A stretch of 64,000 bases of DNA, taken from assembly GCF_026914185.1 (NCBI RefSeq), contig NC_070569.1:372001-436000 (forward strand), read 5' to 3'. Under the pieces are notes generated by a model. The model had not been told where the DNA came from. It worked only from the letters and a program-made list of their open reading frames with translations, and ran no database searches. Shown here one piece after another: positions 15,959 through 62,806 of the stretch (within the stretch, counting starts at the first letter, position 1; each line of letters opens with the position of its first letter). The stretch comes from Puccinia triticina (Eukaryota > Basidiomycota > Pucciniomycetes > Pucciniales > Pucciniaceae). A program made the position numbers and the translations under genes.

Positions 15959-16486
15959 CACTACAAACATGGATAAATTTGGGAAAGCATATATTGATCA
16001 ATATGGCATATATTGATCAAATTATATTGATCATTTTTTTTTTGTTTTGAAATTTCTCTTTGATTTGTTTCCTTCCTGCAACATCAAAACCCTTCTATCA
16101 TCTCTCTTTCTCTTGATTTCCTCCTTTCTTAGTTTTCAACCATATAAGTAAAAGCTTCATTTGGTTGCCAGATCAAAGAGTCATTTTTACATACTCATAT
16201 GAATTATTCCTGAGAAAAAATAGTCTGTTAAGTCAGGCAGGGAGGGGAAGGGGGGAGGAAGAATGGGGAGGCATGAATTATTGTCACTTGAACCTTGCAG
16301 AAGTGATGAAATCTACTTTCCAAAAAAAAAAAAAAAAAAAAAACAATCAGTCTCAATGTATCATGCTACATCAATTTTGTTCAAATTTAATGGTTTGTAT
16401 ATGTGACTCATCATATCCAATATCCTAAATTTCTACTAGGCCTGAGATTGATTTAACTTTTGTACCAGATTTGAGTAAGGTGTCTT
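15959..16486 (+). repeat. Left terminal inverted arm of the giant CACTA element
   Basis: About 525 bp, matched inverted by three right-side segments: 62803 to 62568, 58387 to 58131 and 44216 to 44190, which are separated by Helitron 58388-62567 and element B2. It holds the CACTA terminus, three copies of the TATTGATCAA motif, A/T runs and a purine-rich block at 16240. Homology stops at 'aaggtgtctt', where the satellite begins. Confidence 0.85.
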
Positions 16487-19400
16487 ATATCATGGAAGAA
16501 CTCCCATGCTGTGCTGAGATATAGTGGGAGAAACACCAGGTAACTACCAAATCAGTGATATTTGGCAACTGATCACATTGTGGTTGCTACAATTGGGGGT
16601 TTTGAGGTCATTCAAGGTACACCATGATCCGTTGAGGCCATTCGATCATCTTTGTACCAATATCATTGAAGAACTCCCATGCTGCGCTGAGATATAGTGG
16701 CAGAAACACCAAGAAACTGCCAAATAAGTGATATTTGGCAACCAATCACATTGTAGCTGCTACATTTGGGGGTTTTGTGGTCATTAAAGGTACAAAGTGA
16801 ATCTTTAAGGGCATGTGAACAGTTTGGTACCAATATCATGGAAGAACTCCCAGGCTGCGCTGAGATATAGTGGGAGAAACACCAGGAAACTACCAAATTA
16901 GTGATATTTGGCAATGGATCACATTGTAGCTGCTACATTTGGGGGTTTTGTGGTCATTCAAGATACAAATTGAGACTTTGAGGGCATGTGAACATTTTGG
17001 TACCAATATCATGGAAGAACTCCCATGCTGCGCTGAGATATAGTGGCAGAAACACCAAGAAACTACCAAATTAGTGATATTTGGCAACTGATCACATTGT
17101 GGCTGCTACATTTGGGGTTTTTGTGGTCATTCAAGGTACACCATGAATCTTTGAGGGCATGTGAACATTTTGGTACCAATATCATGGAAGAACTCCCACG
17201 CGGCGCTGAGATATAGTGGCAGAAACACCAAGAAACTACCAAATTAGTGACATTTGGCAACTGATCACATTGTGGCTGCTACATTTGGGGTTTTTGTGGT
17301 CATTCAAGGTACACAATGAAATTTTGAGGGCATGTGAAAATTTTGGTACCAATATCATGGAAGAACTCCCACACTGCAATGAGATTTAGTGGGAGAAACA
17401 CCAAGAAACTACCCAATTAGTGATGTTTGGCAACTGATCACATTGTGGCTGCTAAATTTGGGGGTTTTGTGGTCATTCAAGGTACACAATGAATTGTTGA
17501 GGGCATTCATATATTTTGGTACCAATATCATGGAAGAACTCCCATGCTGCGCTGAGATATAGTGGCAGAAACACCAAGAAACTACCAAATTAGTGATATT
17601 TGGCAACTGATCACATTGTGGCTGCTACATTTGGAGGTTTTGAGGTCATTCAAGGTACACCATGATCCCTTGAGGCCATTTGATCATTTTTTTACCAATA
17701 TCATGGAAGAACTCCCATGCTGCGCTGAGATATAGTGGCAGAAACACCAAGGAACCACCAAATTTTTGATATTTGGCAACTGATCACATTGTGGCTGCTA
17801 CATTTGGAGGTTTTGAGGTCATTCAAGGTACACCATGATCCTTTGAGGCCATTCGATCATTTTTGTACCAAGATCATGGAAGAACTCCCACGCTGCACTG
17901 AGATGTAGTGGGAGAAACACCAAGAAACTACCAAATTAGTGACATTTGGCAACTGATCACATTGTGGCTGCTACATTTGGGGTTTTTGTGGTCATTCAAG
18001 GTACACAATGAAATTTTGAGGGCATGTGAAAATTTTGGTACCAATATCATGGAAGAACTCCCACACTGCAATGAGATTTAGTGGGAGAAACACCAAGAAA
18101 CTACCCAATTAGTGATGTTTGGCAACTGATCACATTGTGGCTGCTAAATTTGGGGGTTTTGTGGTCATTCAAGGTACACAATGAATTGTTGAGGGCATTC
18201 ATATATTTTGGTACCAATATCATGGAAGAACTCCCATGCTGCGCTGAGATATAGTGGCAGAAACACCAAGAAACTACCAAATTAGTGATATTTGGCAACT
18301 GATCACATTGTGGCTGCTACATTTGGGGTTTTTGTGGTCATTCAAGGTACACAATGAATTTTTGAGGGCATGTGAACTTTTTTGGTACCAATATCATGGA
18401 AGAACTCCAACGCTGCGCTAAGATATAGTGGGAGAAACACCAGGAAACTACCAAATTAGTGATATTTGGCAACTGATCAAATTGTGGCTGCTACATTTGG
18501 GGGTTTTGTGGTCATTCAAGGGACACCATGAATCTTTGAGGGCATGTGAACATTTTGGTACCAATATCATGGAAGAACTCCCACGCTGCGCTGAGATATA
18601 GTGGCAGAAACACCAAGAAACCACCAAATTAATGACATTTGGCAACTGATCACATTGTGGCTGCTACATTTGGGGGTTTTGTGGTCATTCAAGGTACAAA
18701 ATGAATCTTTGAGGGCATTAGAACATTTTGGTACCAATATCATGGAAGAACTCCCACGACGCGCTGAGATATAGTGGCAGAAACACCAAGAAACTACCAA
18801 ATTAGTGATATTTGGCAACTGATCACATTGTGGCTGCTACATTTGGGGGTTTTGTGGTCACTCAAGGTACACAATGAATCTTTGAGGGCATGTGAAAATT
18901 TTGGTACCAATGTCATGGAAGAACTCCCACGCCGCAATGAGATTTAGTGGGAGAAACACCAAGAAACTACCCAATTAGTGATGTTTGGCAACTGATCACA
19001 TTGTGGCTGCTACATTTGGAGGTTTTGAGGTCATTCAAGGTACACCATGATCCCTTGAGGCCATTTGATCATTTTTTTTACCAATATCATGGAAGAACTC
19101 CCATGCAGCGCTGAGATATAGTGGCAGAAACACCAAGGAACTACCAAATTTGTGATATTTGGCAACTGATCACATTGTGGCTGCTACATTTGGAGGTTTT
19201 GAGGTCATTCAAGGTACACCATGATCCCTTGAGGCCATTCAATCATTTTTGTACCAAGATCATGGAAGAACTCCCACGCTGCGCTGAGATATAGTGGCAG
19301 GAACACCAAAAAACTACCCAATTAGTGACATTTGGCAACTGATCACATTGTGGCTGCTACATTTGGGGGTTTTGTGATCATTCAAGGTTCACAATGAATT

Positions 19401-19849
19401 GTTGAGGGAATTTGAACATTTTGGTAACAATATCATGGAAGAACTCCCACGCTGCGCTGAGATGTAGTGGGAGAAACACCAAGAAACTACCAAATTAGTC
19501 ATATTTGGCAACTGATCACATTGTGGCTGCTACATTTGGGGGTTTTGTGGTCATTCAAGGTACACCATGAATTTTTGAGGGCATGTGAACATTTTGGTAC
19601 CAATATCATGGAAGAACCCCCACGCTGCGCTGAGATATAGTGGCAGAAACACCCAGAAACTACCAAATTAGTGACATTTGGCAACTGATCACATTGTGGC
19701 TGCTAAATTTGGGGGTTTTGTGGTCATTCAAGGTACACAATGAATTGTTGAGGGCATTCATATATTTTGGTACCAATATCATGGAAGAACTCCCACGTTG
19801 CGCTGAGATATAGCGGGAGAAACACCAGGAAACTACCAAATTAGTGATA
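16487..19849 (+). repeat. 173-bp satellite, family A, forward array
   Basis: About 19 tandem monomers of 173 bp. Landmarks are 'atatcatggaagaactccca', 'gagatatagtgg', 'tttggcaactgatcacatt' and 'gtggtcattcaaggtac'. Spacing between equivalent positions (16890, 17063, 17409, 18101) is 173 or a multiple. Repeated 65-codon minus-strand frames are by-products of the repeat. A block around 17409-17606 recurs identically at 18101-18298, 692 bp (four monomers) away, indicating a higher-order duplication. The array is interrupted by a Helitron at 19850. Confidence 0.95.
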
Positions 19850-22704
19850 CTAGAGGCTAAGGCGGCTGCGCCGCTGCAGGGTCCAGGTCTTGCAAAAATT
19901 AAGGCCCTGTTTGGCAGCATCATATTAGGCAGCATAATAATACAAAACATGCTACATTACATATGGTAAAACATGTTGTTCTAGGATAATTTTTTGAAAG
20001 TAAACCTTCACAAGGCTTGGCAGTTTACTTCCAAAAGATCAGGTGGAAAAGTAGTGTCTTACACAATGTAGGGGGACATGGCAAGAATATTTATTGTGTA
20101 ATAATCATGCTGCCAAACAGGGCCTAAACCCCAACTTGCTAGCAATTTCCGACATCTCAACAAAAGACTCTGAGAATAGACTACTTTAATCAGCCAACTG
20201 CTCAACTTGTTGTAAGCCTCACAGCTATTCACAACATATGCTCTGTTTGCCTCCTCTCATGTTCGCGTCAGTTACTTAGGCAAGACTGGACCGACAAAAC
20301 CTTAGGCCTGACACATCCAAACCTCAATGGCCTGCAGATAACAGGTGACTCAATATCCTCCGGACATTTCTGCTTTCTCAGTCCATGCTGCTGGTGGCAT
20401 CACTCAGCTTTGCGTTTAACTCTATTCAATGACCACCCGGTCGCGCGGCACCCGTTTACAAACCACCTAACTCTTTCAATTTATTGGGAATTAGGTCACT
20501 CTTCCCAAATAACAAGCTCTGTGAGTTACACTTATTAAACAAATAGCAAAAATATGTACAGTATGTTGATCATGATGCCTATTGCGGATGAACATATCGT
20601 GGATAACTTCAGGATCCTCTTCCCCGCGCTTCTTGGCCTCAATTGTCAATAATAATCTCTTGTCTTGCCTGGTTGACTTTAAACCGCAAGCTGTGAGCAA
20701 AGAGCCCATGCCTTTCATCAGGCTCTCAAGTCGAAAGAGGGCGAGTACTCAACGCTCGTGGGTATCTAGAAATCTGCTGTATGGTTTGCTCATGTCGACT
20801 CGCAAACAGTCGTCTGTGAAGTTCATGAAATGTTAGTTAAACAGGTCCTTTGGGGCCGACGGTGGCGAATGGACACACATCATGGCGAAGTACATCGTGA
20901 GTTGGTATCCGCTTTGGAGCACTGACGCCTCTTCAAGTGCCTCGTTGTACAAATAATTGTTGACCAGTAGCCCGTGATCGTTGCAAGAACACAAGCACAC
21001 ACCTTCTGACGGGCTGATATAACGCCTGCCGACGTAAGATTTGACTTCATTGTTGCCATCTAAGCTTATTGCCAACCTGACATGGCCCTTGGTTATGTAC
21101 TTATAAAGGTACTTGATGGCTGCCGTGTTGACGGGGATTTCCACGTTGATGTGGGAGCAGAACGCTCTTATAAGATACAGGCAATACAGAACAACAGACC
21201 GGTTGTCAAAAGTAGTCTTATTCTTTTTTTACGGTCCTTCCAACATCTCGTTGAAGGTAAAGGGGATAAGCACCATCAATGTTGACGGTACACTCGGAAA
21301 ACGGTTTTGGATTACCATATTTACAGGACTTCCCGTTCCAGCAGGGCCAACCTTGGCAAGGTCCGTGGACCATAAAATCACCGACCAATCCGTGCAGGAT
21401 TGGTGAGGTCACCGGATTGGGTATTTCGGCTGAGATAAGTTCGTCAATCGCCTTCAATGTCGTTGGCCGGTCCTTATCGTTGAGTGTCAGCAGGAGATTT
21501 AAATGAGGCCACCCTTGTTTTCGGAATTCAACGGTAAAAACAAAAGCCACAACAGGGCCTAGTCCGTCCATTTTGATTAGCACAAAAAGCAAATAACAAA
21601 TTTTCAGATAAAAAACTCTGGTTACAAGGGTGGGATGGTTGACTGGGGAATCATTAGGTGGGATTTCGGCAATGATTTAAGGCCATTGAGAATGACGAGG
21701 GGAAGGGGCTGTGCTGCGGGATTGGCGGGATGAATTTGATGTATAGAGTGATTGAGAGGTGACTGGAGGGCTGAGACAAAGCCTGGACTGATGCATAGGA
21801 GGGATTGGAGTTGCAAGTGGATTGCAAAGCCCTGGAAACGTGGATATAGATATGTACGCCTTGCGCAACGCAATGGAGACCTGAAGCCGCGGAGACAAAT
21901 ATCTACACCGGCGCCTGGGTGTGGATATCTGGAGTGCATATCAAGGTAGGGATTAGATAAGGCCAGGCGATTTCAGAAATGAGAGTGGCAGGAGTGAATA
22001 CATACAGGCTTAGTTGCGGTGATGTTGTGAGGGTTTGCAGCAAGGCTTGAAAATTTGCAACGGTTGGGGCTGTTGATTATTCCAGGTTGGATGCAAATGT
22101 TGGTGTGGATGAAGGGCGGCGGGAACATATATAGATAACAGACCTTGCCTGAGGTTGGAACGCCACACTGCCAGCATATTTGGCTGGGTTGAAGTCATCT
22201 CAGTTTAACTGGGATGCACTCAACCAATTTAAACTTGGTTGATCTCAACCAATTTAATATAAACCCAAGGGGGGTACCTTGGATTTGTGTTTCATCAGCT
22301 GAGATCACCCAAGTTCAAATTGGTTGAGTGCATCCCAGTTTAACTGGGATAACCTCAACCCAGACAATTATGCTGGCAGTGCCAGCCAAGTGCTTCACTC
22401 GGCTCCCTCCCCTCCGCTGTTGCACTTGCACAGTTCAAGGGGTTTATATATTTGGTGGGCCCCCTTTGCATAATGCCTTGACTGCGCGCGCTGGGGCTCA
22501 TCTGTGTTTTGTCTTTTAAACCTGCTAGGAAGGAAGGGACATTTCACAAATTTTTTTATTTAATTGTATGTTAATTTGTATTTAGCTTATTGGTGATAGT
22601 CAATCTTGTAAAAAGGTTAGTATTACATTTTTTTTGGTATGCCAAGAAATAGGGGGAACCCTTGATCCTGAATTCTATGTTTTGCTGTCTTTAATAAACT
22701 TGGA
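19850..22704 (-). mobile_element. Helitron with degenerate Rep gene, inserted in satellite A
   Basis: Minus strand: the 5' end TCCAAGTTTATTAAAG is at 22704 and the 3' end CTAG at 19850, preceded by a GCGGC-GCA-GCCGC hairpin (19862-19874). It is inserted between A (19849) and T (22705). The flanks rejoin to an uninterrupted satellite monomer (gtgata|tttggcaac) with no duplication, the Helitron signature. It contains the Rep remnant at 20740-21592. Near the 5' end, direct and inverted 'ctcaaccaatttaaacttgg' units occur at 22200-22370. Confidence 0.92.
20740..21592 (-). pseudogene. Degenerate Helitron Rep/helicase-like protein
   Basis: Two minus-strand frames, 21592-21218 and 21144-20833, plus a short continuation past the TAA at 20833, read like the N-terminal Helitron replication initiator domain. 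Seen: GWPHLNLLL in place of the usual HxH (HUH) metal motif, ISAEIPNPVTSP, FMVHGPCQG and DGAYPLYLQRDVGRTV. These are followed by KYLYKYITKGHVRLAI, VGRRYISPSEGV and MYFAMMCVHSPPSAPKDL. In active Helitrons this protein nicks DNA for rolling-circle replication. Here the second His of HxH is lost, a frameshift lies near 21200 and stops follow. No helicase domain remains. Confidence 0.8.
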
Positions 22705-23745
22705 TTTGGCAACTGATAACATTGTGGCTGCTACATTTGGGGGTTTTGTGGTCATTCAAGGTACACAATGAATTGTTGAGGGCATTCAAACATTTTGGTA
22801 ACAATATCATGGAAGAACTCCCACGCTGCGCTGAGATGTAGTGGGAGAAACACCAAGAAACTACCAAATTAGTCATATTTGGCAACTGATCACATTGTGG
22901 CTGCTACATTTGATGGTTTTGAGGTCATTCAAGGTACATCATGATCCGTTGAGGCCATTTGATCATTTTTATACCAATATTATGGAAGAACTCCCATGCT
23001 GCGCTGAGATATAGTGGCAGAAACAACAAGAAACTACCAAATTTGTGATATTTGGCAACTGATCACATTGTGGCTGCTACATTTGGGGGTTTTGTGGTCA
23101 TTCAAGGTACACCATGATCCCTTGAGGCCATTTGACCATTTTTATACCAATATCATAGAAGAACTCCCATGCTGCGCTGAGATATAGTGGGAGAAACGCC
23201 AGGAAACTACCAAATTAGTGATATTTGGCAACGGATCACATTGTAGCTGCTACATTTGGGGGTTTTGTGGTCATTGAAGGTACAAATTGGGACTTTGAGG
23301 GCATGTGAACGTTTTGGTACCAATATCATGGAAGAACTTCCCCGCTGGGCTGAGATATAATGGCAGAAACACCAAGAAACTACCAAGAAACTACCAAATT
23401 AGTGATGTTTGGCAACTGATCACATTGTGGCTGCTACATTTGGATGTTTTGAGGTCATTCAAGGTACACCATGATCCCTTGAGGCCATTTGATCATTTTT
23501 GTACCAAGATAATGGAAGAACTCCCATGCTGCGCTGAGATATAGTGGCAGGAACACCAAGAAACTACCAAATTAGTGAAATTTGGCAACTGATCACATTG
23601 TGGCTGCTACATTTGGGGGTTTCGTGGTAATTCAAGGTACGCAATGAATTGTTGAGGGCATTTGAACATTTTGGTACCAATATCATGGAAGAACTCCCAC
23701 GCTGCGCTGAGATATCTAGTGGGAGAAACACCAGGAAACTACCAA
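22705..23745 (+). repeat. 173-bp satellite, family A, forward array
   Basis: Continuation of the array broken by the Helitron at 19850. About six monomers in the same orientation. One monomer near 23370 has a 16-bp internal duplication of 'gaaactaccaa'. Confidence 0.9.
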
Positions 23746-24221
23746 CAACGGTGGGCCGCTACGCTACACTACGCTACAGGGCCACTTAGCGTTAGCGTAG
23801 CGGCAAGAAGCTCCCGCCCATTTTGAGTAGCGTTAGCGCCGCTACGCTGCGCTACGTTTCAGCGGCGCTAACAGCGCGCCAATTGTTTGTTAGTGTTAGC
23901 GCGCCGCTACAGTCACTACGCTACGCTACGCTAAGCTACGCTACGCTACAGCGCTTTTAGCGGAAAAAAGGCCTTTTTTTCAGCTAAAAGCACTGTGGCG
24001 CACCGTAGCGCGCGCTCTTTTGCGCCCTGAGTGTGTAGCGTTAGCGCAATTGCGCGCATCTGCGCTAACGCTACGCTAACAGCTAAATTAGCTGCGCACC
24101 CTTTGCGCGTAGCGTTAGCGCAGAAAAGGCGCAATTCCGCTAACGCTAGGTTAAAATTTAGCGGAATTCCGATACGCTACGCCACGCTAACGCTACGGTT
24201 AGCGTAGCTGGCCCACAGTTG
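23746..24221. mobile_element. hAT-like foldback element made of GCTACG/GTTAGCG motifs
   Basis: 476 bp with terminal inverted repeats CAACGGTGGGCC (left) and CAACTGTGGGCC (right arm, reversed), flanked by the 7-bp repeat CTACCAA (23739-23745, 24222-24228). The body is an imperfect hairpin of endlessly repeated gctacgctaacg-type words and their complements. CAACG fits the YARNG start of hAT elements, which usually make 8-bp TSDs; the observed 7 bp could be an 8-bp copy with one base lost. The minus frame at 23946-24134 is a repeat artefact. Confidence 0.65.
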
Positions 24222-24953
24222 CTACCAAATTAGTCATATTTGGCAACTGATCACATTGTGGCTGCTACATTTGGGGGTTTTGTGGTCATTCAAGGTACAC
24301 AATGAATTGTTGAGGGCATGCAAACATTATGGTACCAATATCATGGGAGAACTCCCACGCTGCGCTGAGATATAGTGGGAGAACCACCAGGAAACTACCA
24401 AATTAGTGATATTTGGCAACTGATTCCATTGTGGCTGCTACATTTGGGGTTTTGTGGTCATTCAAGGTACACCATGTATCCTTGAGTGCATGTGAATATT
24501 TTGGTCCCAATATAATGGAAGAACTCCCAGGGTGCGCTGAGATATAGTGGGAGAAACACCAGGAAACTACCAAATTAGTGATATTTGGCAACAGATCACA
24601 TTGTATCTGCTACATTTGGGGGTTTTGTGGTCATTCAAGGTACACCATGAATCTTTGAGGGCATGTGAACATTTTGGTACCACTATCATGGAAGAACTCC
24701 CACGCTGCGCTGAGATATAATGGCAGAAACACCAAGAAACTACCAAATTAGTGACATTTGGCAACTGATCACATTGTGGCTGCTACATTTGGGGTTTTTG
24801 TGGTCATTCAAGGTACACAATGAATTTTTGAGGGCATTCAAACATTTTGGTACCAATATCATGGAAGAACTCCCACGCTGCGCTGAGATATAGTGGGAGA
24901 AACACCAGGAAACTACCAAATTAGTTATATTTGGCAACTGATCACATTATGGC
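24222..24953 (+). repeat. 173-bp satellite, family A, forward array
   Basis: About four monomers in the same register and orientation. The array stops abruptly inside a monomer after 'cacattatggct', where unrelated sequence begins. Confidence 0.9.
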
Positions 24954-26707
24954 TCAGACCGGCCATCGAGAGGTATGAATCTCCTCGATGCCGGGCTGTT
25001 CCGGTCATCAAGAGGTGGTACCTCCCTCAATGACCGCACAGACCGGTCATCGAGAGCTATGACTCCCTTCGATGACCGGCACAGACCAGTCATCGGAGAG
25101 TAGGAGTGAATCTGCTTGATGCCGGTCTGTACCGGTTGTTGAGAGGTGTGATGTGAGCCTGTGTCTCTTATGTGACAGCAGGACACAAGAAAAGAAGGGG
25201 GAATAGTTTGTATTTCTTGGGATAAAGAAATACAAACTGAGAGAGAGGAAGAGAAAGAGAGAGAAAAGAGAAGATCAGGCCTAGACTTTAAGTTTTTCTA
25301 AATTGATCTGGGCTATTCTCAACCTGAAAAAGTTGGATGCCAGCTGTGCCAGGCCAAAGAAGAGTGCAACAGCCTCCACTCACAACAAGAAAACGTTGGT
25401 GGGATTCAGAAGTAGGGTTACTACTCTGCTCTGGTTTTATAGGTCTTAACCAGAGATAACCTTTTGATCTCTTATGATTGGAAGAGTTGAAGAAAAGAAG
25501 AAACAATCAAGAGCAACAGAGTTTCACTCTGAATAAGCAAGGTTCAGTGAAAGAGTTTACTTACTGTCAATATCCTAGGCGCCTGTGACGGTAGGTATAC
25601 TGGGAGCGTGGTAATCTCTTTGGTGGTTATCCTGGGTTATCTGGGGTGTGGTTCTGGTGTGCTGAAGTCTGTGGATCCTCCAGCTGCATGGGGGATCCTG
25701 ACTTCGAAAATTTTCAAAGTTGGATGAAATAATCACACATGTACATGTGTTTTGGAGCGCTCAGGCGCGACTACAAGGCGCTGCTGCGCATGCATGTCAC
25801 AAACCACAAACTCTATGAAGGAGTAGAGATATTGGAAAGTGATCGGTGAACACTAGGGTCAAAATTGCATGAGAAATCAGAATCTGAAGTCAAAAAAACC
25901 TTATGTTTTAAGGATAAAAAGATATAAACACATTTAGGTATAAAATGGAGATAAAAGGCAGACTTTAGGCCAGCTGCGCTGGCTCTAAGGCTGACATGTG
26001 AGCCCAATACCACTACAGACCGGCATCGAGACAAGATGGAGACCTCGCGGAGGATGCCTTCCCGGCAAGTGGGGACACAACTACTCACAGCCACCTGACT
26101 GGTCATCTTGAGGATTAAAGCTCTCAAGCTGACCTGTAAACACTTGGATGAGTGTGTACAGGCCTGTACAGGCTGCAGGGCCCTGACAACCAAGTTGTCA
26201 AGTTTTGGTACCAAGGATTTCAGGGCCCAGGGTGTGTGAGCTTGGTTGGATACTTAAAGGGCTGAGGGGAAGCTGTTTGTCCCCCCAGGGGATCTGGTTT
26301 CGTCCACCCCCTCCCTGAAGGCCCCCTATTTCATTTGAGTAGGCCCCTTCTTGATTTCAAAAACAAAAATTCCAACAAACCCAAACAAAACTTTAACAAT
26401 TTAAACTTTAAACTCACACAAAACAAGAAAATTTAAACTTTGAACTCACACGCACAACACAAAAACATTTAAACTTTGAGCTGACACAAAACAAAAACAT
26501 TTGAACACAATCAAAACAGACAAAAACAATAATTTAAACTCAAACAAACCAGAAACTCTGTACTGAAAAAATAACTTAAACTTTTTAAACTTAAGGAACA
26601 CAAATTTCAAACTTTTAATTTCTTCTGCCTGCAATTTCAATGAAATGCAGCATGAACCCCGGCCATGAAGTCAGTTTCTGTGAAACTGTGGTTTTAATAA
26701 ACTTGGA
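24954..26707 (-). mobile_element. 3'-truncated Helitron remnant with GACCGGTCATCGAG repeats
   Basis: The right boundary is a Helitron 5' end on the minus strand (TCCAAGTTTATTAAAAC at 26707), again abutting the satellite phrase 'tttggcaac'. No CTAG/hairpin end is found on the left, so that end has been lost. The left part (24957-25150) consists of gaccggtcatcgag words alternating with their complements, as in the foldback at 27766. A solo LTR is nested at 25152-25996. Near 26360-26620 there is a low-complexity stretch of 'tttaaactttgaactcacac'-like units. Confidence 0.6.
25152..25996 (-). mobile_element. Solo LTR of family A
   Basis: 845 bp, minus orientation like the LTR at 3121, with a perfect 5-bp TSD TGTGA (25147-25151, 25997-26001). 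It lacks the nested copia LTR and so documents the empty site for the insertion at 3645. Confidence 0.88.
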
Positions 26708-34780: not shown

Positions 34781-34787
34781 CCAAATT

Positions 34788-45019: not shown

Positions 45020-45051
<32 letters not shown>

Positions 45052-47609: not shown

Positions 47610-47817
47610 GTAAGACCTGAAGAATTTGGATAGGCAGAGACTGTTTGAAGAACAATCTCAGAACGGTAAAGTTATTTATATCAATTATTAAAAGAAAACC
47701 CCCAATTTGCCCTGGTAAAGAGACCAGAGACCAGATATTATTGTTTCTTTTTCAGAGCACAGTAACAGGTAGTAGCGGATATTCATATTACAAAACCAGG
47801 AATCAACACGAACCGGC

Positions 47818-51870: not shown

Positions 51871-53792
51871 AAGAGATAATTGGAGAAGATATCACCCTGA
51901 AGAACCTTGATTATTCGAAAGACGCAGGGCTTATTGTTTTAGCAGTGGACTCCAGTTTCATTGCGGCCGGTGCAGTACTCTCACAACAGGAGCTTGAAAC
52001 CGGATTAAATCGACCAGTATTGTACGAATCAATTGTGTTTTCGCCAGTCGAATCGAAATATTCACAGCCTAAACTGGAACTCTGTGGGGTGGCACGAATC
52101 CTGAAAAAACTACAAACGCTCTTATGGGGTCAACATTTCGAACTCCAAGTGGACGCGCAGTCCCTAATTCAAATGATCAACTCACCTTCACTTCCAAATG
52201 CCCCCATGACAAGATGGGTAGCATTCATCCAACTTTTTTCGTTCGAAATGGTGCATAAGCCAGGGAAAACGTTCACGATGCCAGACGCCTTGTCCAGACG
52301 TCCAATAAGCGACGAAGAGGAAGAATTCTACAATGATACGGAAGACTTTGACGAGGAAGAACCCCTAATCAAAGCCTGCTCATGGTATAACATAATTTCA
52401 GCCTCAACGGAACTATTGGAGTGGGAGACTTCTGGTTTCTGGACAGACCTCAAATATTATCTACAAACACTGCAGAGACCTTGTTCTATGGATCTGGAGG
52501 ACTTTCAGAAACTTAAACGAAAATCGGTTAACTATTTTATCCAGAATGGACGACTCATGAGAAGACATTCACCCATGCCACAACTAGTGATCTCCAAGAT
52601 ATCCTACCAGAGCAAGTTATTACGAATGGTTCACGAAGATCTAGGACACCGGGGACTTGAGGAAACATACCAGCGATTAGTCTGCCGATTTTGGTGGCCA
52701 AGTTTGAAGAAAAAAGTCAAATTATGGGTACATAGCTGCGAACCTTGTCAAAAGAGGGACCCATTAGTTCCACGAGAAATACGGCACCCCACAGGAGAGA
52801 GTAGCTTATTCGGACGAGTAGCTTTGGACGTCTGTCATATCAAAGCTGGACGGTACAAGTACTTGCTAGTAGCACGGGATGATTTGTCTGGATGGGTTGA
52901 AGCAGCTCCTCTGGTGAAACTGACAGCCGCAACTATTGGAAAATTTCTCCTTGAAGAATGGGTCTATCGATATGGCGTAATCAAAGCGGTGACGGCAGAC
53001 AATGGACCGGAATTCAAGAATGAATTCATCAAAGCAGTCGAAAAGATTGGAGCAGTATTTAGGCCTCCTACACCTTATTATCCTGAAGCCAATGGTATGA
53101 TTGAAAGAGGACACCGACCCATTAAAGACACCCTAATCAAGATGTGTGGCGAATCTGGTGGGAAATGGAGGGAATATCTGCCTTTAGTACTCTTTGCTGA
53201 CAGAATTTCGACAAAACGCACAACGGGATATTCACCTTACGAGCTGGTGTTCGGCCAGAAAGCGGTTCTCCCGGTTGACTTGGAAATGGACACTTATCTG
53301 GGGATTGATTGGACTGAAGTCAGCACCACGGAACAACTCTTGGAGGCAAGGACTATGCAACTGGAACATCGAGAAGAAATTCTAGGGATAGCTCACGAAA
53401 AGTTGATGAAGGTCAGAAATTCATCTGTTCGATACTGGGATTGACGAATGGCAGCAAGACTTCGGAAGCCGTTAGATCCAGGAGAACTAGTTTTGGTCTA
53501 CAACAAAAGCCTGGAGGATCAGTGGGGAAAGTTGTTTGCAAATCGATGGAACGGACCTTTTCGGATCAAGCAACAACTACCCAAGGGTTCCTATATCTTG
53601 GAAGAATTGGATGGGACTGAACTCAAGAGGGCTTATGCAGCTTCACATATCAAACGGTTTTACCCTCGAGGACGTGAACTAGCAGACATTCAGGAGGATG
53701 AGGATCCATCTCAGCCGGAGCCTGCAGACGACGAAATGGAGGAAGTATCTGGCAACAGTTCGGATGGTGGATCATCAGATGGCTCTGACTGA
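51852..53792 (+). pseudogene. B2 RNase H-integrase (out of frame with RT, one internal stop)
   Basis: This continues the polyprotein in another frame. RNase H carries IVLAVDSSF, PKLELCGV, LQVDAQSL and MPDALSRR. The integrase zinc finger is VHEDLGHRGLEET ... CEPCQK. The DDE core shows ALDVCHI, VTADNGPEF and GMIERGH. A TGA at 53442-53444 interrupts the C-terminal domain, after which the same frame continues (RKPLDPGELVLVYNK, KLFANRWNGPFRI) to an acidic tail, ending at 53792. Integrase would insert the cDNA. With the RT-side deletion and the stop, this copy cannot make a complete Pol, though proteins from relatives could mobilise it. Confidence 0.9.
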
Positions 53793-53951
53793 GCTGGATC
53801 ACACCTACCAGGGTTGTTGTTTAAGTTGGGGGAGGAAAAAAGACCTGCTCCTGACAAAGTCACTCTTTAAATAATTTCAATTGTCAGTTCAGTGGATATC
53901 AGGACCATCTTTTCAAACCAAAGCAAAAACTCAACATAAAACAACAACAAC

Positions 53952-53983
<32 letters not shown>

Positions 53984-54388
53984 CACACAGCTTCTATACT
54001 GTTCCTTCTTCTCCATTTCTCTTATCTTTTTTCTCTCTCTTTCTCTCTCAGTGGTATGCTTACAGGGAAGGTTGGGGACAACCTGTTTAAGTTGGGGGAG
54101 GGGGGTCTGGGATGGATTAATTTCAAAAATGAAAAGAACAAAAGACAACAATAAAATAAAAATAACTAATCATCTTTATCCTTAGGGTTCTGGGGGTTTT
54201 ACAATTTTTTTTTTTTTTTTTTTGAGTTTTTTAGGATTATCTATCGATTTTTTTGAGAAGGATACGTTTTACCCCGGGTACTCTGGACAAAAGATTAGTA
54301 AAAACAGAAAACTAGGAAAGAAACAAGCCAGAGGATCAGTATTGTGGGTGTAAGCAGGTGTAAAAAGAGGAGGAAACTCACGAAGGAA
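53793..54388 (+). other. B2 post-pol segment with A- and T-runs
   Basis: A purine-rich 'gttgggggaggaaaa' block at 53824 and another at 54089 resemble the terminal polypurine tract at 57189. Between them are a run of about 30 A (53950-53989) and CT-rich repeats. No gene is seen on either strand before the end of the antisense gene at 54389. Confidence 0.5.
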
Positions 54389-55731
54389 CTAGTCATTGTA
54401 GCCAGCTTGACGCATGGTAGATCGAAACTCTTCGGATACGACCTGGAAGATGTGAACTCGCTGGATTCGACCGTTGACAACCTCGTTGGGAATCTGCTGG
54501 CAGTAGGGTACGAAGGCTTGAGCAAAAGTGTGATAGAGCCTAGTATAGGCCTCGGAGTCGATTGCGAAACGAGCACGATGCTCGATAGCTAAGGGACGAT
54601 GGGGCTCCAGGAGAGCTTGGACTTGGAGGTCGCTTAAGAAGGGGTAATCCTCGATCGGGGGTTGACCAATGATGGAGGGGGTGGAAGCACGAGAAATGCT
54701 ACTCATGCTGACGTCGTCCGCCAGATCAGTCTCGGTGACACCATCGGCATCGGCCTCACCATCGGCATCACCATTGGCATCATCAACGCCGTCGGCATCG
54801 GCACCACCTTCAGGATCAACGGCATCAACCTCGATGGGTTGATGACCGTTGGGCTCGTTACCAGTAGGCGCGGGCTGGTTAAGCCAGTCGGGTGATAGAG
54901 TAAGGAGAAGGACGTACACCACCCGACCACTCAATAAGGAGGTCCATCCCATCATCGGCGCGATCGGTCTCGGCAGTAGCTTCCCCGGATTGAGATGAGC
55001 CTGACGCACCCGAACCCTGGGAACGATCCCCATACTCGGCCGAGGAATGAGACCCGTACTCGGACGAATCTGCGATTGAGTTTCGACAGCTGATAGCCGG
55101 CGAAGTGAGGTTGCTGGGACGAGGAGCAGCCGGTACCAGCCACTCGTCGCCTATGACAACTCGGTTGGATACTAAGAACTGTGTGGCGAAGATTGGTGGT
55201 CAGGAACTCGCATGGAAAAAAAAGGGAAGAGAAAGATTGACTCACTGGATTGTCGGCTTCGTCGGAAGCGGGTCGATAAACGGGCGAGTTGGGATGCGAT
55301 CTCTCACCCGGGAGGCGAGGTTGGTATACTGGAGACGCCTGGCCGGGACTGGCTGCATCCGCACCCTGAAAGCGGGGGTGGAGGCCCACCAACCCGGGGG
55401 GAACCCGCGACGGGGAGGGCGACGGGGTCCGGAGTTCGGACGGGGAATCCGGACGATCACTGGATGCGATAATCTGAAGTAACCGAAGAATGGAGTCAGT
55501 ATCGGATCGGATAGCTTACAGCGGTCCGGATATACAACTCACCGAAGCCACTTGGGCCATCGCCGATCCGGCAACGACAAAAGGCCGATGATCCGGAGAA
55601 GCCGGGCCATCAGCTGAGCGATTGACTCGGGTTCGAGGTCGATTGGGGCGGTTGAACGCTTCCAAACGCTGGCGGGACCATTGGAACCATGAAGGACGAA
55701 TCACCCCGCCTCTGTACATAGGCCCGTCCAT
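54389..55731 (-). CDS. Spliced antisense gene inside element B2 (unknown function)
   Basis: Proposed minus-strand model: exon 1 55731-55543 (63 codons), exon 2 55473-55246 (76), exon 3 55178-54918 (87), exon 4 54874-54389 (161 plus stop), all in phase 0, about 387 residues. Introns 1 and 2 (69 and 67 bp) have GTGAGT donors, CTGAC branch sites and CAG ends. Intron 3 (43 bp, GTACGT ... CCAG) is short and less certain. The product is basic at the N-terminus and Pro/Ser-rich in exons 2-3, with an acidic DADG-repeat. The C-terminal region is conserved-looking and helical (FLSDLQVQALLEPHRPL ... VVSEEFR). No known domain was recognised. It lies opposite to gag-pol, between pol and the 3' LTR, and could be a captured gene or an accessory/antisense gene of the element. 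Confidence 0.55.
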
Positions 55732-57188
55732 GATAAGGATAGGGTTGTGTACAGAGGAACCTGGCTAGTAGCAGAACAACCAACACGGGTCAGCAGTGCG
55801 ACAGGACCGCAAGCTACTGGTATGAGGAACAAAATGGACGCACTCGAGTTGAAGCGCTAGCAGAGGCCCCGCGGGCTCGTAACGGGTAAGGGGACGGGGA
55901 AAAGTAGGTACGATAGTAGGGTCTGTTGAACATGGCAGCAGACGAAAGTAATAAGCCTAGAAAAGTAGTACTGGGGAGGAGTGAGGTGGATGATGAGGTG
56001 GGAGGAGGCGAGGGGAACCTTTTTTATACTCACCTCGGATTCTGTGAGGACTCATAGGGACTTAAGGACCCGTAGTCCTTTTGCCCCATGCGCGGGCTCT
56101 GAACGGAGGCCACAGACCATTGGTAACTAGAGGTTGGATCGTTCGACTCGACCAAATAGGAACCCCAGATAGAGTCGAGCCGGACGGCGTGCGGGGCCAT
56201 CTCTCCCTCCGGAACGATACGTACTCGAACCCACGGCCAGGTCTTGAGAAGCCGGCTGTTGTAGGAAGCGGAAAGAATGCGGCAATTAGTCTTACCGTCT
56301 TAGGGCCGGCCGCTATGAGATCGCCGGCTGGAAACCAACCTTGCCGGCGAAGGCAGCCCAATCAGAAACCCCGAAGACCTGTCAGATTCGGTGGTGCGAG
56401 TGGGGCTGGTAATAAATCTGACGGCTGCATCAGCCAACGTAACGGCCACTCAGCTGTTGAGGAAGAACACGAACGCACTTACTTCGAAAATGAACCCTGC
56501 TCACTAGCAGGGTTCAGTCTAGCTGCAGGCTTGGATGGTGCGAGACCTCGACGGCGGCGGTTGACCATTGGCGGCGGTGATGTATCCGAGGGAATCGGAA
56601 GGTCGGCGAAGTTGTGTATGGGTCTTGAACCCCAAACCCATACGCCTTGAACTCCTGAATAAGCCATACCCCCGAAGGGGGTACGACCGACACACATACA
56701 CACTCAAGACCCGAATGCGGGGTCGGGATAGCTATTGGACGGGTACGACCAACACTAAGTACCCGGGCCCAAAGCCCGATCAGTCAACCATCAAGAACGG
56801 GTACGAGTCCCCAATCACTACTCGACACTCGAGGCCCGCGGCCTCGACAGCGCGCACCCTGAGGCGCTGGAGCAGCAGCTGCGGCCGCCACCATAGCACA
56901 AGCAGCACCATTGCGCAACTGCGCAACTGCGGACTGCGGACTGCGCGCAGCACTTCGACTCCCAGACACCTTAAAAATTTCCCTTCAAGAAAAGTCAGAA
57001 AAACGACAAAAGTTGAATTTTTGACCAAAATTCACCCCACCCAGCCTCTCTGACACAGTACCCAGAAGACATCCAACGGCCAAATTCCCAAGGATTCTTC
57101 ATGTCACCCAGTAAAAAACTCAAGCCTCAAGCTTCCAAAATTCAAGATACGGCACTTTTCCGGTGGAATTGTCTGGGGACAGACAATA
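55732..57188. other. B2 tail between antisense gene and polypurine tract
   Basis: GC-rich 1.4 kb with several mid-length frames on both strands (for example 56081-56650 plus, 56062-56361 minus), none recognisable. The minus strand here would be the promoter and leader of the antisense gene. Inverted words around 56630-56720 ('acgcct/aggcgt', 'ccccttcggggg') could form small hairpins. A 'gcgcaactgcgcaactgcggactgcggactgcg' run lies at 56912. Confidence 0.4.
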
Positions 57189-57201
57189 AGTTGGGGGAGG
57201 A
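57189..57201 (+). promoter_or_regulatory. Polypurine tract of B2
   Basis: agttgggggagga directly precedes the 3' LTR (57202), the position and composition expected for the plus-strand primer of an LTR retrotransposon. Confidence 0.8.
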
Positions 57202-58004
57202 TGTGGTAGACGGAAAAGTGAAAAATCAAAAGTTTTTTCGCATACATATATTTACTCACAATACGCCCCAAGATACCATCAAACAGACCTCAGAAATGGA
57301 TTCTACGGCCAATTTTACCCCTAGTCACCACTGAAAGCATCACCTGAACCCCGCTGGATTGGAACCTACACTTCTTTGGACACTGGACACCCATCACACG
57401 TTCAACATACCCAGTCACCAGCCTGTCACCAGCCTCAATTCAAGGATCACAGCATTATGCTTATACAAATCACAGGATACAAACATACATCTCCCCATCA
57501 GACTGCAGTCATTACATATTATCAAGTACTCTTCTATTTCCATATTATGATGTCATCACACACTGACTCTGCAGCCTCGGACTTCATTTATGCACCCCCT
57601 GCATCCACCTGTCAACTCATGCAGTCTACTGTCACTTTACGCAGCCTTCATGTGGCCCTACTGCATTCTTATGACATCATTTATGTACCCCTGACACATT
57701 ATGACATCATTTGTATCTACTCCCACCAGCTAAAATCCCTCACACTGTTGTCTAGATTAGTCAAAACCCTAACCCACAAGCCCTCTGGGGCTCCACTTTT
57801 GTCTATATAAGGAGCTCCCTCCTCCCCAGTTGTCAGCTCCTCAGTTCATTACTCACCAATCACAGTCACCCCAACATTTACAGTTCAGCCTTATATATAT
57901 ACTTAAACAACCTACATAACAACCCTTACATTAACAATAACAACAATTTATTCAGTGTCATCAACAAGCTCATCTTGAACCAACCAACCCTATCACTTCA
58001 TTAA

Positions 58005-58036
<32 letters not shown>

Positions 58037-58126
58037 ATCTGATAGTATAGAAGGGCAGAGTTTGCACCTCCATCATCCCCTTCTCCATTCAGCAAAAGGT
58101 TCTCAGGAACACTTTTGAGTCTTACA
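57202..58126 (+). repeat. 3' LTR of B2
   Basis: 925 bp, the same length as the 5' LTR and identical by eye except C at 57268. TATA box at 57804. The TSD ACGT follows at 58127. Confidence 0.95.
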
Positions 58127-58387
58127 ACGTTAAATCAATCTCAGGCCTAGTAGAAATTTAGGATATTGGATATGATGAGTCATATAAACAAGCCATTAAA
58201 TTTGAACAAAATTGATGTAGCATGATATATTGAGACTGATTGGTTTTTTTTTTTTTTTTTTTTGGAAAGTAGATTTCAACACTTCTGCCAGGTTCAAGTG
58301 ACAATAATTCATGCCTCCCCATGCCTCCTCCCCCCTCCCCCTCCCTGCCTGACTTAACAGACTATTTTTTCTCAGGAATAATTCATA
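58127..58387 (-). repeat. Right arm of the giant CACTA element, middle segment
   Basis: Inverted copy of roughly 16205-16470 of the left arm, between the B2 insertion and the Helitron insertion. It includes the pyrimidine-rich block that mirrors the purine block at 16240. Confidence 0.88.
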
Positions 58388-58753
58388 CTAGAGTTCAAGG
58401 CGGCTACGCCGCTGCACTTCCAGGGGTTCACAAATTAACATCTCCTCTCCCCTGAAATTTGAGCTTCAATCATCATCAAGATCCTGTGTGGTACATTTTC
58501 CTCAATAAGAATTCCATTAATCATTGGATTTTCTACATCATCTCCTAAGAAACAAAACACCACTTCAGGTGGGCCCATTTGGTTACTTTAAAACAGTGAA
58601 ACTCTATTTGACCAAAGAGATGAGGTAGCCCTGCCAAACACCGGAGATATACATTATCAAAGACTCAACTGTGACAAAAAATTAAACTGGCCAGAGGTAC
58701 CAACATAAACTTTGGGACTTGAACACTTATAAACAACACACTCAGTTATTAAG

Positions 58754-59931
58754 GGGGATATTGAATTTTACAAAGTGTTTTTTACAAGGTACAAGGCCCT
58801 GTAAAAAATATCTTTGTAAAAGTACACATCAAGGGGGAGAATGTGTAATTTTACAATGTGTTGGCTAGATTCCCACCTTGTAATGTAAAAGCAACCTTGT
58901 AAAATTGTACCTGAAGTCTTCCATGTGGAATTTTACTTGGTGTTTTTTTTACAAAATGCCACCTTGTAAAAAAAGTACCTTGCAAAATTGCATATTTGCA
59001 GCAAAAACCTGAATTTTACAAGGCAAATTTTGAGGAAGCAGTACACCATGCAAAATGTACCTTGTAAAAATCAATAATAATGGCAACCAGGTTTGAAATT
59101 ACAAGGTGTTGTGTAAATTTTACAAGGTGGTTTTGGTACACTGCACAAAATCTACCTTGTAAAAGTCAGTAAAAGTGATTAAAAAGCTCAAATTTACAAC
59201 TTGCTGTGGGAAATTTACAAGGCAGTTTTTTTTTTTTTTTTGGAAAACCCACTACTACCAACTGCACTTGGAAAATATGAACTTCTGCTGGAATTATGAA
59301 GTTTCTGGGAGTCATGAATCACCACATAACCCTTGGTCAAGGTTTATGTCAGTGGAGTGAATTCTCTTATTGCCCCTGCACCTTCAATAATTTCAGAAGG
59401 AGTGCATATTGGACAATGTGCAGTTTGGGGAAGTCAATTTTCCAAAGGAGGAAGGAGTAAAAACACCCTGTAAAATCTCCACAACACCTTGTAAATTTGA
59501 AACTGGTAGTCAATTTTATTGATTTTTGCAACACATGTTTTGCTTGGTGTACTGCTTCCTCAAAATTTGTCTTGTGAAATTCAGGCCTTTGCAACCACCA
59601 TTCAGAAGAAACTTTCTTATTACGCCAAACCTTGCACCAGCCCAAGTGAATTACTTTCGCAGAATTTCTTACAATTTTTTGCCGCTGCAAATATGCAATT
59701 TTGCAAGGTACTTTTTTTACAAGGTGGCATTTTGTAAAAAAACACCAAGTAAAATTCCACATGGAAGACTTCAGGTACAATTTTGAAAGGTTGCTTTTAC
59801 ATTACAAGGTGGGAATCTAGCCAACACATTGTAAAATCACACATACACCCCCTTAATGTGTACTTTTACAAAGAATTTTTTTACAGGGCCTTGTACCTTG
59901 TAAAAAACACTTTGTAAAATTCACCCACCCC
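58754..59931. mobile_element. MULE-like palindromic element (TTTTACAAGG repeats)
   Basis: 1178 bp. Inverted ends GGGGATATTGAATTTTAC / GGGGTGGGTGAATTTTAC are flanked by a perfect 9-bp TSD GTTATTAAG (58745-58753, 59932-59940). The arms are near-identical for over 250 bp and the homology continues toward the centre. The word ttttacaagg and its complement recur throughout. A 9-bp TSD with long inverted arms is characteristic of Mutator-like elements. No transposase; frames at 59367-59780 and 59519-59786 overlap the arms and are artefacts. Confidence 0.82.
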
Positions 59932-61085
59932 GTTATTAAGGTGTTTACCAACTGAGTTGACAAAATAAATATGAGTGCTTTTGTAATATGGAGAGTATTA
60001 CTTGTGGTTCTAACAATGTCAGATTGTATGCAAACAAAGAGTTATGACCAATCATTGATGATTGTTGTAAAACAAATAATGATCTAAACATTGGGCTGAC
60101 TAATATTTTATTGACAAAAATACAGGTTGCTTATTAACTTCATTGGATCATGCATAAAAAGGGGGATGGATTTAAGCATTGGTTTCATTGCTTCAGGAAG
60201 CCTTTAGCCTTGCCAGTTCTACTTTAAAACATACTAAGTTGCATTTGTGAGCCATCAATAGTTTTGACAGGCTTTTGGTCATATGGCATTTCAGGACAGC
60301 CATAACTAATCACAGCAGCAGCAAGCAGGTATGTAAAAAAGGGAGGGTTCTTCAAGTCAAAGCTGCCCCTCAGGCCCAGATTGAGTCAGGTGCAAATTGT
60401 GCAATGCTCTCTCACAAAATGGCTTTGTTTTTTTAAACCTCAATGAATCCAAACAGAGAATTGGATTGGGGCAGGGGGAGTTTGGTTGAACATTGAATTT
60501 CATTTGTGCAGGGACAACATGGGGCAAACATTAATTTATTAGTGACAATATTATAAGGTCCGGGTTGTTAAGTTTTTTAACAGCCCTGCGTGCAAGGAAT
60601 CCAACAAATCACTTTCAGAGCAAGGGGAGGATGAGAAAGTTGTGCATGCTGACCAAGGCTTCACCAGCGGAAGCTGAGGCGCTCCACTGGGTGTCACCGG
60701 TGTCAGTGGAAGCTAAAAAAATTTGCACAGATAAGAGTTTGAATTAGTAAGACATATATTGCCTGCCTGTCAAGAGATACCAAACGTCCTTGCAACACTG
60801 ACCCCAATCAATTGTGGCTTCAGCGGCAGCGGTCCCTTGGAGATCAAAGAACTCTTGGCATAAGAGCGACCAGTTCAATCCAACCGAGTGATTTTCCTTG
60901 TTTTTGATTGGGATCACAACATTGACAAAGGTCAATGAGACATTGGTGTCAAATGCCCGGTCACAGGAATGTTGATGTATGACGGGGTTCCTTGGAGGAT
61001 CCGATGATGTAATTGGTGAAGTTACAAGCTGTGATTTACAGAGACATTTTTTCAATCAGCTAGACTTTGAGGGGGAGGAGGAAAG

Positions 61086-61613
61086 TCAGATGGATACCAA
61101 CAGGTGAGCCAGCCGGCAATAGCCTGGGCTCCGGTGTTGGCATCCAATTTCAGCACTGCTCGGTGTCCGCAGGGACCAAGAGAGATCACGCAAAAGTTGA
61201 ACAGCCAAGAGAAGGCTAATGTCCTCCTCAGTGGCAAGGCCGGCGGCAGACAACCCAAAGCCATATTGATGAGTCGGGTCGGTTTTTCGTGGGGATACTA
61301 AGCGGGTGGTCAAAGGAGCGCTAGAAATTTGCTTGATACCCAGTGAGATATCTTGACGAGAACAGGGTGAGTGACCGATTTGGAACTGGTGGCAGAGGGA
61401 AATGGTCGCGGGCGCCGCTTGCATTGGAGAGGCTGTGGTCGAAGGCTTCCTCAGATTGAAGGCCACGTAGGCCAGGCGTATTGAGCGAGGAGACAGAGTA
61501 GAATTAAATTGACGAAGAGAAAGCAGGCAAGACTCCCTGCCGCAAGTCATAGACCACCTGTGCTGGAGATTGCTATTTTCATCACGGGTTGAAATTTGAA
61601 TTGTTGATCCCAA
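61086..61613 (-). CDS. Possible captured gene fragment in Helitron (unknown)
   Basis: 175 codons on the minus strand, start [20 protein letters not shown]. An adjoining frame continues downstream to about 61052 ([15 protein letters not shown]). Composition is more coding-like than the flanks. No family is recognised. Captured host gene fragments are common in Helitrons, which is the reason for listing it; it may also be chance. Confidence 0.25.
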
Positions 61614-61937
61614 GCACCTGGTGACTCCTCCGCAATCTCTCCCAGCGCGTGATGCAACGAGTCCGTTTTTTCTCTTCTAATGAAGGAGGGAAGAGCACCA
61701 AGAACCAAAGACATGATCTCTGAGAGATGCTACAATGTGGTATAGGTGCAAGCGACTGGATGGTGGAGGGGTCATGGGCCTCAACAGACTCTTGAGGGGC
61801 GGATCAAGCAGGACAAGTTTACACCTGGTGAGATGCCTACATGACAGGTTACAAGGAGTGTTAGGGTGAAGTGTTTCATTTTAAAGCAGTAATTCATGCA
61901 AAGGTCTTTCGTCGAAGTTCAGACAAATGATACATAT

Positions 61938-62354
61938 TTACATGCTGAGGTAGTCAGAGCAGACCCGTCGTGGGACTGGGAGGCAATCAGGTTGTGTTAC
62001 GGTGAAAACACCACGACTGTGGAGATAGTGTGTATGTATCCAACTCAAAGGTGATATTATCAACTGTATGCCAAAGGCAGTCTTGTCAGAGTTTACATAG
62101 TCGGTTGTCAGAGCAATGGTGAAATTGGGTGTTGAATGAGATGGTTGACCGTGGCGGTGGGGGTGATTCATGGTGTACTTGACAACAGCCAGTGGAGTCA
62201 AAGCGTTCGGAGGCCGTGGCAAGGATATAAATATCTGTCCCTCAAAGCAATGGTGAAACTTCCTCAGGGCATCCCCCGTTGCACTTGCGCGGGTTGATGT
62301 CCTCAGCCCCGACTTTTGCCCCACGCACTTGCGCCAGGCTGAGCGGGTTAACAC
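61938..62354 (-). CDS. Possible second captured fragment in Helitron (unknown)
   Basis: 138 codons on the minus strand, with a protein-like middle (FISLPRPPNALTPLAVVKY, TPNFTIALTTDYVNS). It lies close to the Helitron 5' end. No recognised domain; low confidence. Confidence 0.25.
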   Translation of the reverse strand: MLTRSAWRKCVGQKSGLRTSTRASATGDALRKFHHCFEGQIFISLPRPPNALTPLAVVKYTMNHPHRHGQPSHSTPNFTIALTTDYVNSDKTAFGIQLIISPLSWIHTHYLHSRGVFTVTQPDCLPVPRRVCSDYLSM

Positions 62355-62567
62355 CGGTCTCTTTTCACCTGTGGCATGTCACAGGCTGGGAGTTTGTTAA
62401 ATCTGTTGCTTTTCATCATGTACATTAGAAATTTTGAAATTGTTACTTTGGTTTGGCTTTCTATTTAGCTTGTAGGGAAAACCTCTTTTGTGTTTCTGAA
62501 GAAACTCATGTACAGGGGAAACCCTTGATTTTTTTTTTTGTGAATCTGTGGTTTTAATAAACTTAGA

Positions 62568-62803
62568 TGAGTATGTAAAAATGACCTATTCAATCTGGCA
62601 ACAAAATGAAGCTTTTACTATTGTTGAAAACTAAGACAGGGGGAAATCAAGAGGAAGAGGGATGATAGAAGGATTATGATGTTGCAGGAAGGCAAAAAAT
62701 TAAAGAGAAATTTCAAAAAAAAAAAAAAAGATCAATATAATTTGATCAATATATGCCATATTGATCAATATATGCCTTCCCAAATTCATCCATGTTTGTA
62801 GTG
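62568..62803 (-). repeat. Right arm of the giant CACTA element, terminal segment
   Basis: Inverted copy of 15959-16200, including the T-run and three TTGATCAA motifs, ending in the CACTA terminus at 62803. By-eye identity to the left arm is high, with scattered substitutions and short indels. Confidence 0.9.
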
Positions 62804-62806
62804 AAA

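What the first reader, a model, noticed from the sequence alone, without database searches (positions are those of the whole stretch)
15959..62803. A 46.8-kb CACTA-type transposon that splits a gag gene
Seen: inverted CACTACAAACATGG ends, arms of about 525 bp, AAG/AAA flanks, and gag halves of one retroelement on either side. Excision with one 3-bp flank restores the gag frame just before the zinc knuckle, exactly as in the intact relative B2. Known: CACTA (CMC) elements have CACTA ends, 3-bp TSDs and subterminal repeats. Inferred: everything between is one insertion plus later nested insertions. Even without these, about 9-10 kb of satellite-filled, apparently gene-free element remains.
Basis: partly seen in the sequence, partly recalled or inferred. 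Interest (0 to 1): 0.9.

Follow-up and report, generated by a model that had tools for sequence, protein, structure and literature searches.

The report
Jumping gene built from satellite DNA

Summary
In detail: inverted CACTACAAACATGG ends at 15959 and 62803, arms 94% identical, and flanks that are two halves of one degenerate gag, rejoining in frame with one 3-bp flank. The genome has 114 exact ends in 39 facing pairs; 37 of 39 have identical 3-bp flanks (chance 2.4%). The window copy (AAG/AAA) is one of the two exceptions. The 15 shortest pairs were read in full: 14 are arm, 173-bp satellite, inverted satellite, arm; none has an ORF above 168 aa. It is a non-autonomous CACTA-type foldback transposon with a satellite body. 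With related end types there are 605 ends; 19 of 19 tested satellite sites on three chromosomes lie inside such elements. Eight close copies differ by whole monomers, with hybrid monomers at the joins. A 33-kb copy with SNF2 and CACTA-transposase genes looked autonomous, but those genes form a separate nested transposon. The family's own transposase was not found, and 22 long copies were not fully read. Closest precedents: Tetris (foldback, 8-9 bp duplications) and Chenopodium CACTA elements with a 171-bp satellite. New variant of a known kind.

The parts
15959..16486 (+). left arm, begins CACTACAAACATGG; TTGATCA motifs at 36, 55 and 69 from the end
   Evidence: 40 arms at 92-100% identity in the genome, itself included, 40 of 521 candidates scored
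16487..19853 (+). 173-bp satellite array, plus orientation
19854..22703 (.). later insertion in the array, ending AATAAACTTGG
22704..27151 (+). rest of the left satellite array (22704-23745, 24217-24956, 26707-27151), split by two more insertions
27152..30239 (.). inserted DNA including a 607-bp inverted repeat (27768-28374 / 28683-29289, 94.6%)
30240..41168 (+). nested relative with end CACTACCAAGATGG: arm, satellite (-) 30900-33816 and 36826-40236, short satellite (+) 40303-40574, right arm lacking about its last 70-80 bp
41170..42199 (-). 173-bp satellite, minus orientation, assigned to the outer element
42200..43925 (+). 174/348-bp satellite subtype next to the right arm, colinear with the left end of the C2 copy
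43926..44216 (-). inner right arm region (arm proper 44190-44216)
44217..58127 (+). B2, a Ty3-type LTR retroelement nested in the right arm; its two 926-bp LTRs differ at 1 position; 4-bp repeat ACGT at the target
58131..58387 (-). middle part of the right arm
58388..62567 (.). second insertion in the right arm (4.2 kb, starts CTAGAG, ends AATAAACTTAGA)
62568..62803 (-). terminal part of the right arm
13138..15958 (+). left part of the target: LTR-like and degenerate gag sequence of a B2 relative
62804..63900 (+). right part of the target gag, starting just before the zinc knuckle (its end was not determined)

Best explanation
A non-autonomous CACTA-type (En/Spm, CMC) foldback DNA transposon. 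Ends CACTACAAACATGG and up to three subterminal TTGATCA motifs per end are probably recognised by a Transposase_21 protein supplied from elsewhere in the genome (inferred). Cut-and-paste insertion leaves 3-bp duplications of varied sequence (the duplications are shown by 37 of 39 pairs; the cut-and-paste step is inferred from the family). Between the arms lie two kilobase arrays of a 173-bp satellite in opposite orientation, usually with a 255-bp centre (shown in the copies read). The unit moves as a whole (shown by near-identical same-side arms at unlinked sites), while its arrays gain and lose whole monomers by in-register recombination or slippage (shown by hybrid monomers in three tested joins). 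The window copy inserted into a gag gene and later collected about seven insertions.
For:: 114 exact ends, 37 of 39 exact 3-bp flanks, 26 different triplets, cross-pair chance 35/1482; the 15 shortest pairs read in full; 14 are arm/satellite(+)/satellite(-)/arm; no ORF above 168 aa; the 255-bp centre is at least 98% identical in 13 of 15. TTGATCA at all of 36, 55 and 69 at 16 of 30 ends and at least once at 30 of 30; all three also in the diverged nested end at 30240; in the 8 copies sharing a 2430-bp piece, same-side arms differ by 0.35% (left) and 0.83% (right) between copies, left and right arms by 2.7% within a copy; in 5 copies without the piece 1.5%, 1.0% and 3.9%; monomer order is largely colinear among the 8; three junction monomers tested fit the two flanking parents with 0-2 mismatches against 4-8 for the best single parent; 605 ends over related end types; 19 of 19 satellite 60-mer sites on C1-C3 lie in pairs or within 15 kb inside an end (3.7% of that sequence); 17 of 22 adjacent CACTACCAAGATGG pairs in a partial listing have exact 3-bp flanks (cross pairs 12/462); at least 150 Transposase_21 matches exist in the genome.
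Against: No transposase belonging to the family was found. Transposase_21 falls in only 2 of 39 pairs (3 hits, 0.9 expected), and in the one copy followed up it belongs to a nested element with its own ends. One transposase unit in the C13 pair has five copies at about 99%, three of them not near an exact end; the other C13 hit and a hit in a 40-kb pair of the second end type were not resolved. 22 of the 39 pairs (all 13 kb or longer) were not read, apart from pieces of two of them. The window's own flanks are AAG/AAA, not identical. 5 of the 22 second-type pairs lack an exact flank, some perhaps mispaired because listed ends were incomplete.
Confidence: 0.86

Rival explanations
1. The family is autonomous: long copies carry SNF2 and Transposase_21 genes of their own, and the satellite copies are deletion derivatives.
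For: The 33.4-kb C2 copy contains SNF2 and Transposase_21 ORFs; the 58.8-kb C13 pair contains two Transposase_21 hits; a 40.3-kb pair of the second end type on C3 contains one.
Against: The C2 unit is also found on C17 at 99%, with homology ending at C2-element positions 7207 and 31806, inverted ends CACCACGGACG and its own 3-bp flanks TAT/TAT and ATA/ATA. Of five copies of one C13/C3 unit, three are not near an exact end. The other cases were not examined.
Confidence: 0.1
2. Foldback element of another superfamily with 3-bp duplications (PIF/Harbinger).
For: 3-bp duplications and short inverted ends occur there too (recalled).
Against: Harbinger favours TWA targets (recalled); only 3 of 37 exact duplications here are TTA or TAA. 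The ends are CACTA and subterminal repeats are present.
Confidence: 0.03
3. Free satellite arrays that CACTA ends captured repeatedly, so the satellite is not primarily transposon DNA.
For: Chenopodium CACTA elements are described as capturing a 171-bp satellite (PMC8978399, passages).
Against: 19 of 19 tested satellite sites on C1-C3 are inside elements; members with two different end types carry homologous satellite.
Confidence: 0.1

Closest known systems
Tetris foldback transposon of Drosophila virilis (PMC4079207; outline with abstract and the section 'Characterization of Tetris' read)
   Same: Long inverted ends with an outer unique domain followed by tandem repeats (220 bp), no conserved ORFs, repeat number varying by duplication, and a role in satellite origin.
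   Different: Tetris complete copies have 8-9 bp duplications, are three in number and have inverted ends of up to 1.7 kb; here 3-bp duplications, CACTA ends, 39 facing pairs of one end type and arrays of up to about 6.3 kb.
CACTA-like Jozin elements of Chenopodium with a 171-bp satellite array (PMC8978399, passages; PMC7320549, abstract)
   Same: CACTA element carrying a kb-scale satellite of nearly the same monomer length (5550 bp, 32.5 monomers).
   Different: There an array sits near the 3' end of a transposase-coding element; here two inverted arrays are nearly the whole element and no transposase gene was found in it.
En/Spm (CACTA, CMC) transposons in general (recalled)
   Same: CACTA ends, 3-bp duplications, repeated subterminal motifs.
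   Different: Foldback body made of satellite; no transposase genes in the copies read.

Membership tests
CACTA / En-Spm (CMC) | terminal inverted repeats starting CACTA | tested here: met
   CACTACAAACATGG and two variants, facing pairs, reversed control 0
CACTA / En-Spm (CMC) | 3-bp target duplication without fixed sequence | tested here: met
   37 of 39 exact, 26 different triplets; 17 of 22 for the second end type; the window copy itself has 1 mismatch
CACTA / En-Spm (CMC) | repeated subterminal transposase-binding motifs | tested here: inconclusive
   TTGATCA at 36, 55 and 69 at 16 of 30 ends, at least once at 30 of 30; binding cannot be tested
CACTA / En-Spm (CMC) | Transposase_21 encoded by the autonomous member | tested here: inconclusive
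   many in the genome, none shown to belong to these ends
Foldback elements | long inverted arms containing tandem repeats, with a middle domain | tested here: met
   inverted arrays in 14 of 15, and in the other orientation in the fifteenth; 255-bp centre in 13 of 15; L052 is near-palindromic (86%) with no centre
Tetris | 8-9 bp target duplication | tested here: not met
   exact matches of 3 bp in 37 of 39, of 4 bp in 2, of 5 bp in 1, longer in 0
PIF/Harbinger | TWA target duplication (recalled) | tested here: not met
   3 of 37 exact duplications are TTA or TAA

The most novel reading that the evidence does not exclude
A satellite DNA exists in this genome only as the body of a transposon family (about 300 elements if most of the 605 ends pair). 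The mirrored arrays are then not passengers but a functional part: an amplified subterminal domain whose conserved core (TGAGATATAGTGGCAGAAACA, kept between the 173- and 174-bp subtypes, which are only about 70% alike overall) is bound by the transposase or by chromatin proteins and helps the element move or escape silencing.
Probability: 0.2. Interest if true: 0.78.

Novelty: new variant of a known kind. Interest (0 to 1): 0.58.

Why it matters
How satellites spread to unlinked sites is a long-standing question. Here complete copies, eight of them with same-side arms under 1% apart on average, show dispersal by transposition and array change by in-register recombination side by side, with the molecular scars (3-bp duplications, hybrid monomers) intact. 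It also shows a foldback element with CACTA-type ends. My full-text searches (CACTA with satellite and Puccinia; foldback with CACTA, tandem repeat and terminal inverted repeat; satellite DNA with CACTA and fungus; foldback with transposon, satellite and fungal genome, no paper) listed no title or abstract opening that reports such a family in a fungus; the listed papers were mostly not opened.

Tried and rejected
Autonomous copy on C2: proposed, rejected after (nested 24.6-kb element with its own ends and 3-bp flanks). Transposase unit near ends on C3 and C13 (98.9% alike): five copies at about 99% in all, three not near an exact end, left open. Plavaka transposase (PF18759): 29 matches, 20 at the cut-off; 26 of 29 coincide with hits and none lies in a pair. 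TGATCA inside the satellite as an extension of the subterminal motif: not more conserved than the rest of the monomer. Evening-out between the two arms of a copy: not seen, left and right differ as much within as between copies. A first attempt at monomer conservation by exact length left only 3 and 2 monomers and was redone by profile with 559 and 89. Solved structures for the C2 transposase: one meaningless match at E 0.069. Rfam on 15900-62900: nothing. Pfam on three of five ORFs of 120 aa or more from a 5.5-kb piece of a 16.6-kb copy, and one from the 2430-bp piece: nothing over a cut-off.

Full report
What is there. The window lies in an unnamed 122.8-Mb genome of 18 contigs; size and contig number suit one haplotype of a rust fungus, which is recall, not a test. 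CACTACAAACATGG occurs once on each strand of the window, at 15959 and 62803. The two arms, the right one in three pieces, are 94.4% identical over 519 ungapped columns, far above 200 random comparisons that exclude the arm regions (an earlier control that did not exclude them reached 411). Outside lie two halves of a degenerate gag related to B2 (44217-58127). The left half matches B2 up to residue 425, the right half from residue 427, and joining them with one 3-bp flank supplies the one codon between and keeps the frame at the joint. Elsewhere the outer gag has stops and a frame change.

Is it a transposition product? The 14-base end occurs 114 times in the genome, its reversed control never. 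All 114 flanks were listed. They form 39 facing pairs shorter than 80 kb; 37 have identical 3-bp flanks, one has one mismatch (the window) and one has two (C5:4537907, AAA/TTA). Cross-pairing gives 35 of 1482. Identity of 4 bp is seen in 2 pairs and of 5 bp in 1. Lengths run from 5.96 to 58.8 kb.

Anatomy. I read the 15 shortest pairs in full (5.96-12.3 kb), a size-selected set. Fourteen show arm, satellite in one orientation, satellite in the other, arm; the fifteenth (L025/L026) contains the related 174/348-bp form in the opposite arrangement. Thirteen share a 255-bp centre at 98% or more; eight share a 2430-bp extra piece at 98.7% or more. No stop-to-stop frame exceeds 168 aa. TTGATCA lies at all of 36, 55 and 69 at 16 of the 30 ends and at least once at 30 of 30; the nested relative at 30240 keeps all three. 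173- and 174-type monomers are homologous, sharing the cores TGAGATATAGTGGCAGAAACA and TACCAATATCATG.

How copies differ. Among the eight copies with the 2430-bp piece, left arms differ from each other by 0.35% and right arms by 0.83% on average, while left and right arms of one copy differ by 2.7%; in five copies without the piece the values are 1.5%, 1.0% and 3.9%. So whole units moved recently and the arms were not evened out. Arrays of the eight hold largely the same monomers in the same order, with whole-monomer losses and duplications. Three junction monomers tested fit a hybrid of the monomers bounding the gap with 2, 1 and 0 mismatches, against 8, 4 and 6 for the best single parent: in-register recombination or slippage.

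A larger superfamily. Allowing related ends with up to two mismatches gives 605 ends (305 and 300; control 0); the 100 rows listed show the end types CACTACAAACATGG, CACTACCAAGATGG and CACTACCAACATGG. One member of the second type, L052, is a 4803-bp near palindrome (halves 86% alike) of arm and satellite with TGA/TGA flanks. Of 22 adjacent pairs of that type in a partial listing (100 of 235 rows; ends with C six bases before the end not in the pattern), 17 have exact 3-bp flanks against 12 of 462 cross pairs. An exact satellite 60-mer found in 13 of 14 elements occurs 103 times in the genome. On C1-C3, where the end listing is complete, 19 of 19 sites lie in a pair or less than 15 kb inside an end, a zone of 3.7%. 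The sites on other contigs were not tested this way.

The transposase. Transposase_21 has 150 scored matches (179 candidates), 3 of them inside 2 of the 39 pairs (0.9 expected). The 33.4-kb C2 copy (read but for its last 214 bases) has SNF2 and Transposase_21 genes, which I first read as the autonomous member. A 99% copy of that unit on C17 ends at C2-element positions 7207 and 31806; its ends are CACCACGGACG... inverted, with TAT/TAT flanks on C2 and ATA/ATA on C17. It is a different, nested CACTA-like element, and what remains of C2 outside it has no frame of 150 aa or more. One transposase unit on C13 and C3 near family ends has five near-identical copies, three not near an exact end; the second C13 hit was not followed beyond a comparison. 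So mobilisation in trans is the likeliest reading, inferred and not shown.

The window copy. Its own parts are arm, 173-bp array (+) in four pieces, 173-bp array (-) 41170-42199, 174/348-bp array 42200-43925 and the broken right arm, 9.66 kb in all (the assignment of inner pieces to the outer element is inferred). The remainder is nested: B2 (its two LTRs differ at 1 of 926 positions), a 4.2-kb insertion, a CACTACCAAGATGG relative at 30240-41168 without its right tip, and several insertions with a common AATAAACTTRG end. Left and right ends carry different satellite subtypes, so the copy is a mosaic.

Known or new. Foldback arms that seed satellites are known from Tetris, and a CACTA element with a kb-scale satellite is known from Chenopodium. 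The rust transposon survey PMC12210899 names CACTA among superfamilies, and a word search of its main text found no satellite, tandem repeat or foldback. The combination seen here, CACTA ends with a body of inverted satellite arrays, is a new variant as far as searches go.

Noticed in passing
L037-L040 (about C2:5796016-5820609) and about C17:3164639-3188745: A 24.6-kb CACTA-like element with an SNF2-type helicase gene and an 829-aa Transposase_21 protein, ends CACCACGGACGTTTGCTCAGCAC, 3-bp flanks TAT/TAT and ATA/ATA; the SNF2 part recurs at 96-99% on C18, C10 (two), C5, C7, C8 and C13.
   Followed up: partly
window 19854-22703, 24957-26706, 27152 onward, 58388-62567; also the 2430-bp piece of L014: Several insertions share an AATAAACTTRG(A) end or a CTAGAG start, and some sit between A and T without a clear duplication; possibly one non-autonomous family.
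   Followed up: no
window 3115-5628, 25149-25997, 33811-34780: A second inverted-repeat structure recurs outside and inside the element.
   Followed up: no
window 27768-29289: 607-bp inverted repeat at 94.6% identity around short tandem repeats.
   Followed up: no
window 45988-47237: GC-rich 138-bp tandem and inverted repeats inside the B2 retroelement, between its LTR and gag.
   Followed up: no
C3:576069-616381: A 40.3-kb CACTACCAAGATGG pair contains a Transposase_21 hit and an SNF2-like hit; whether nested is not known.
   Followed up: no
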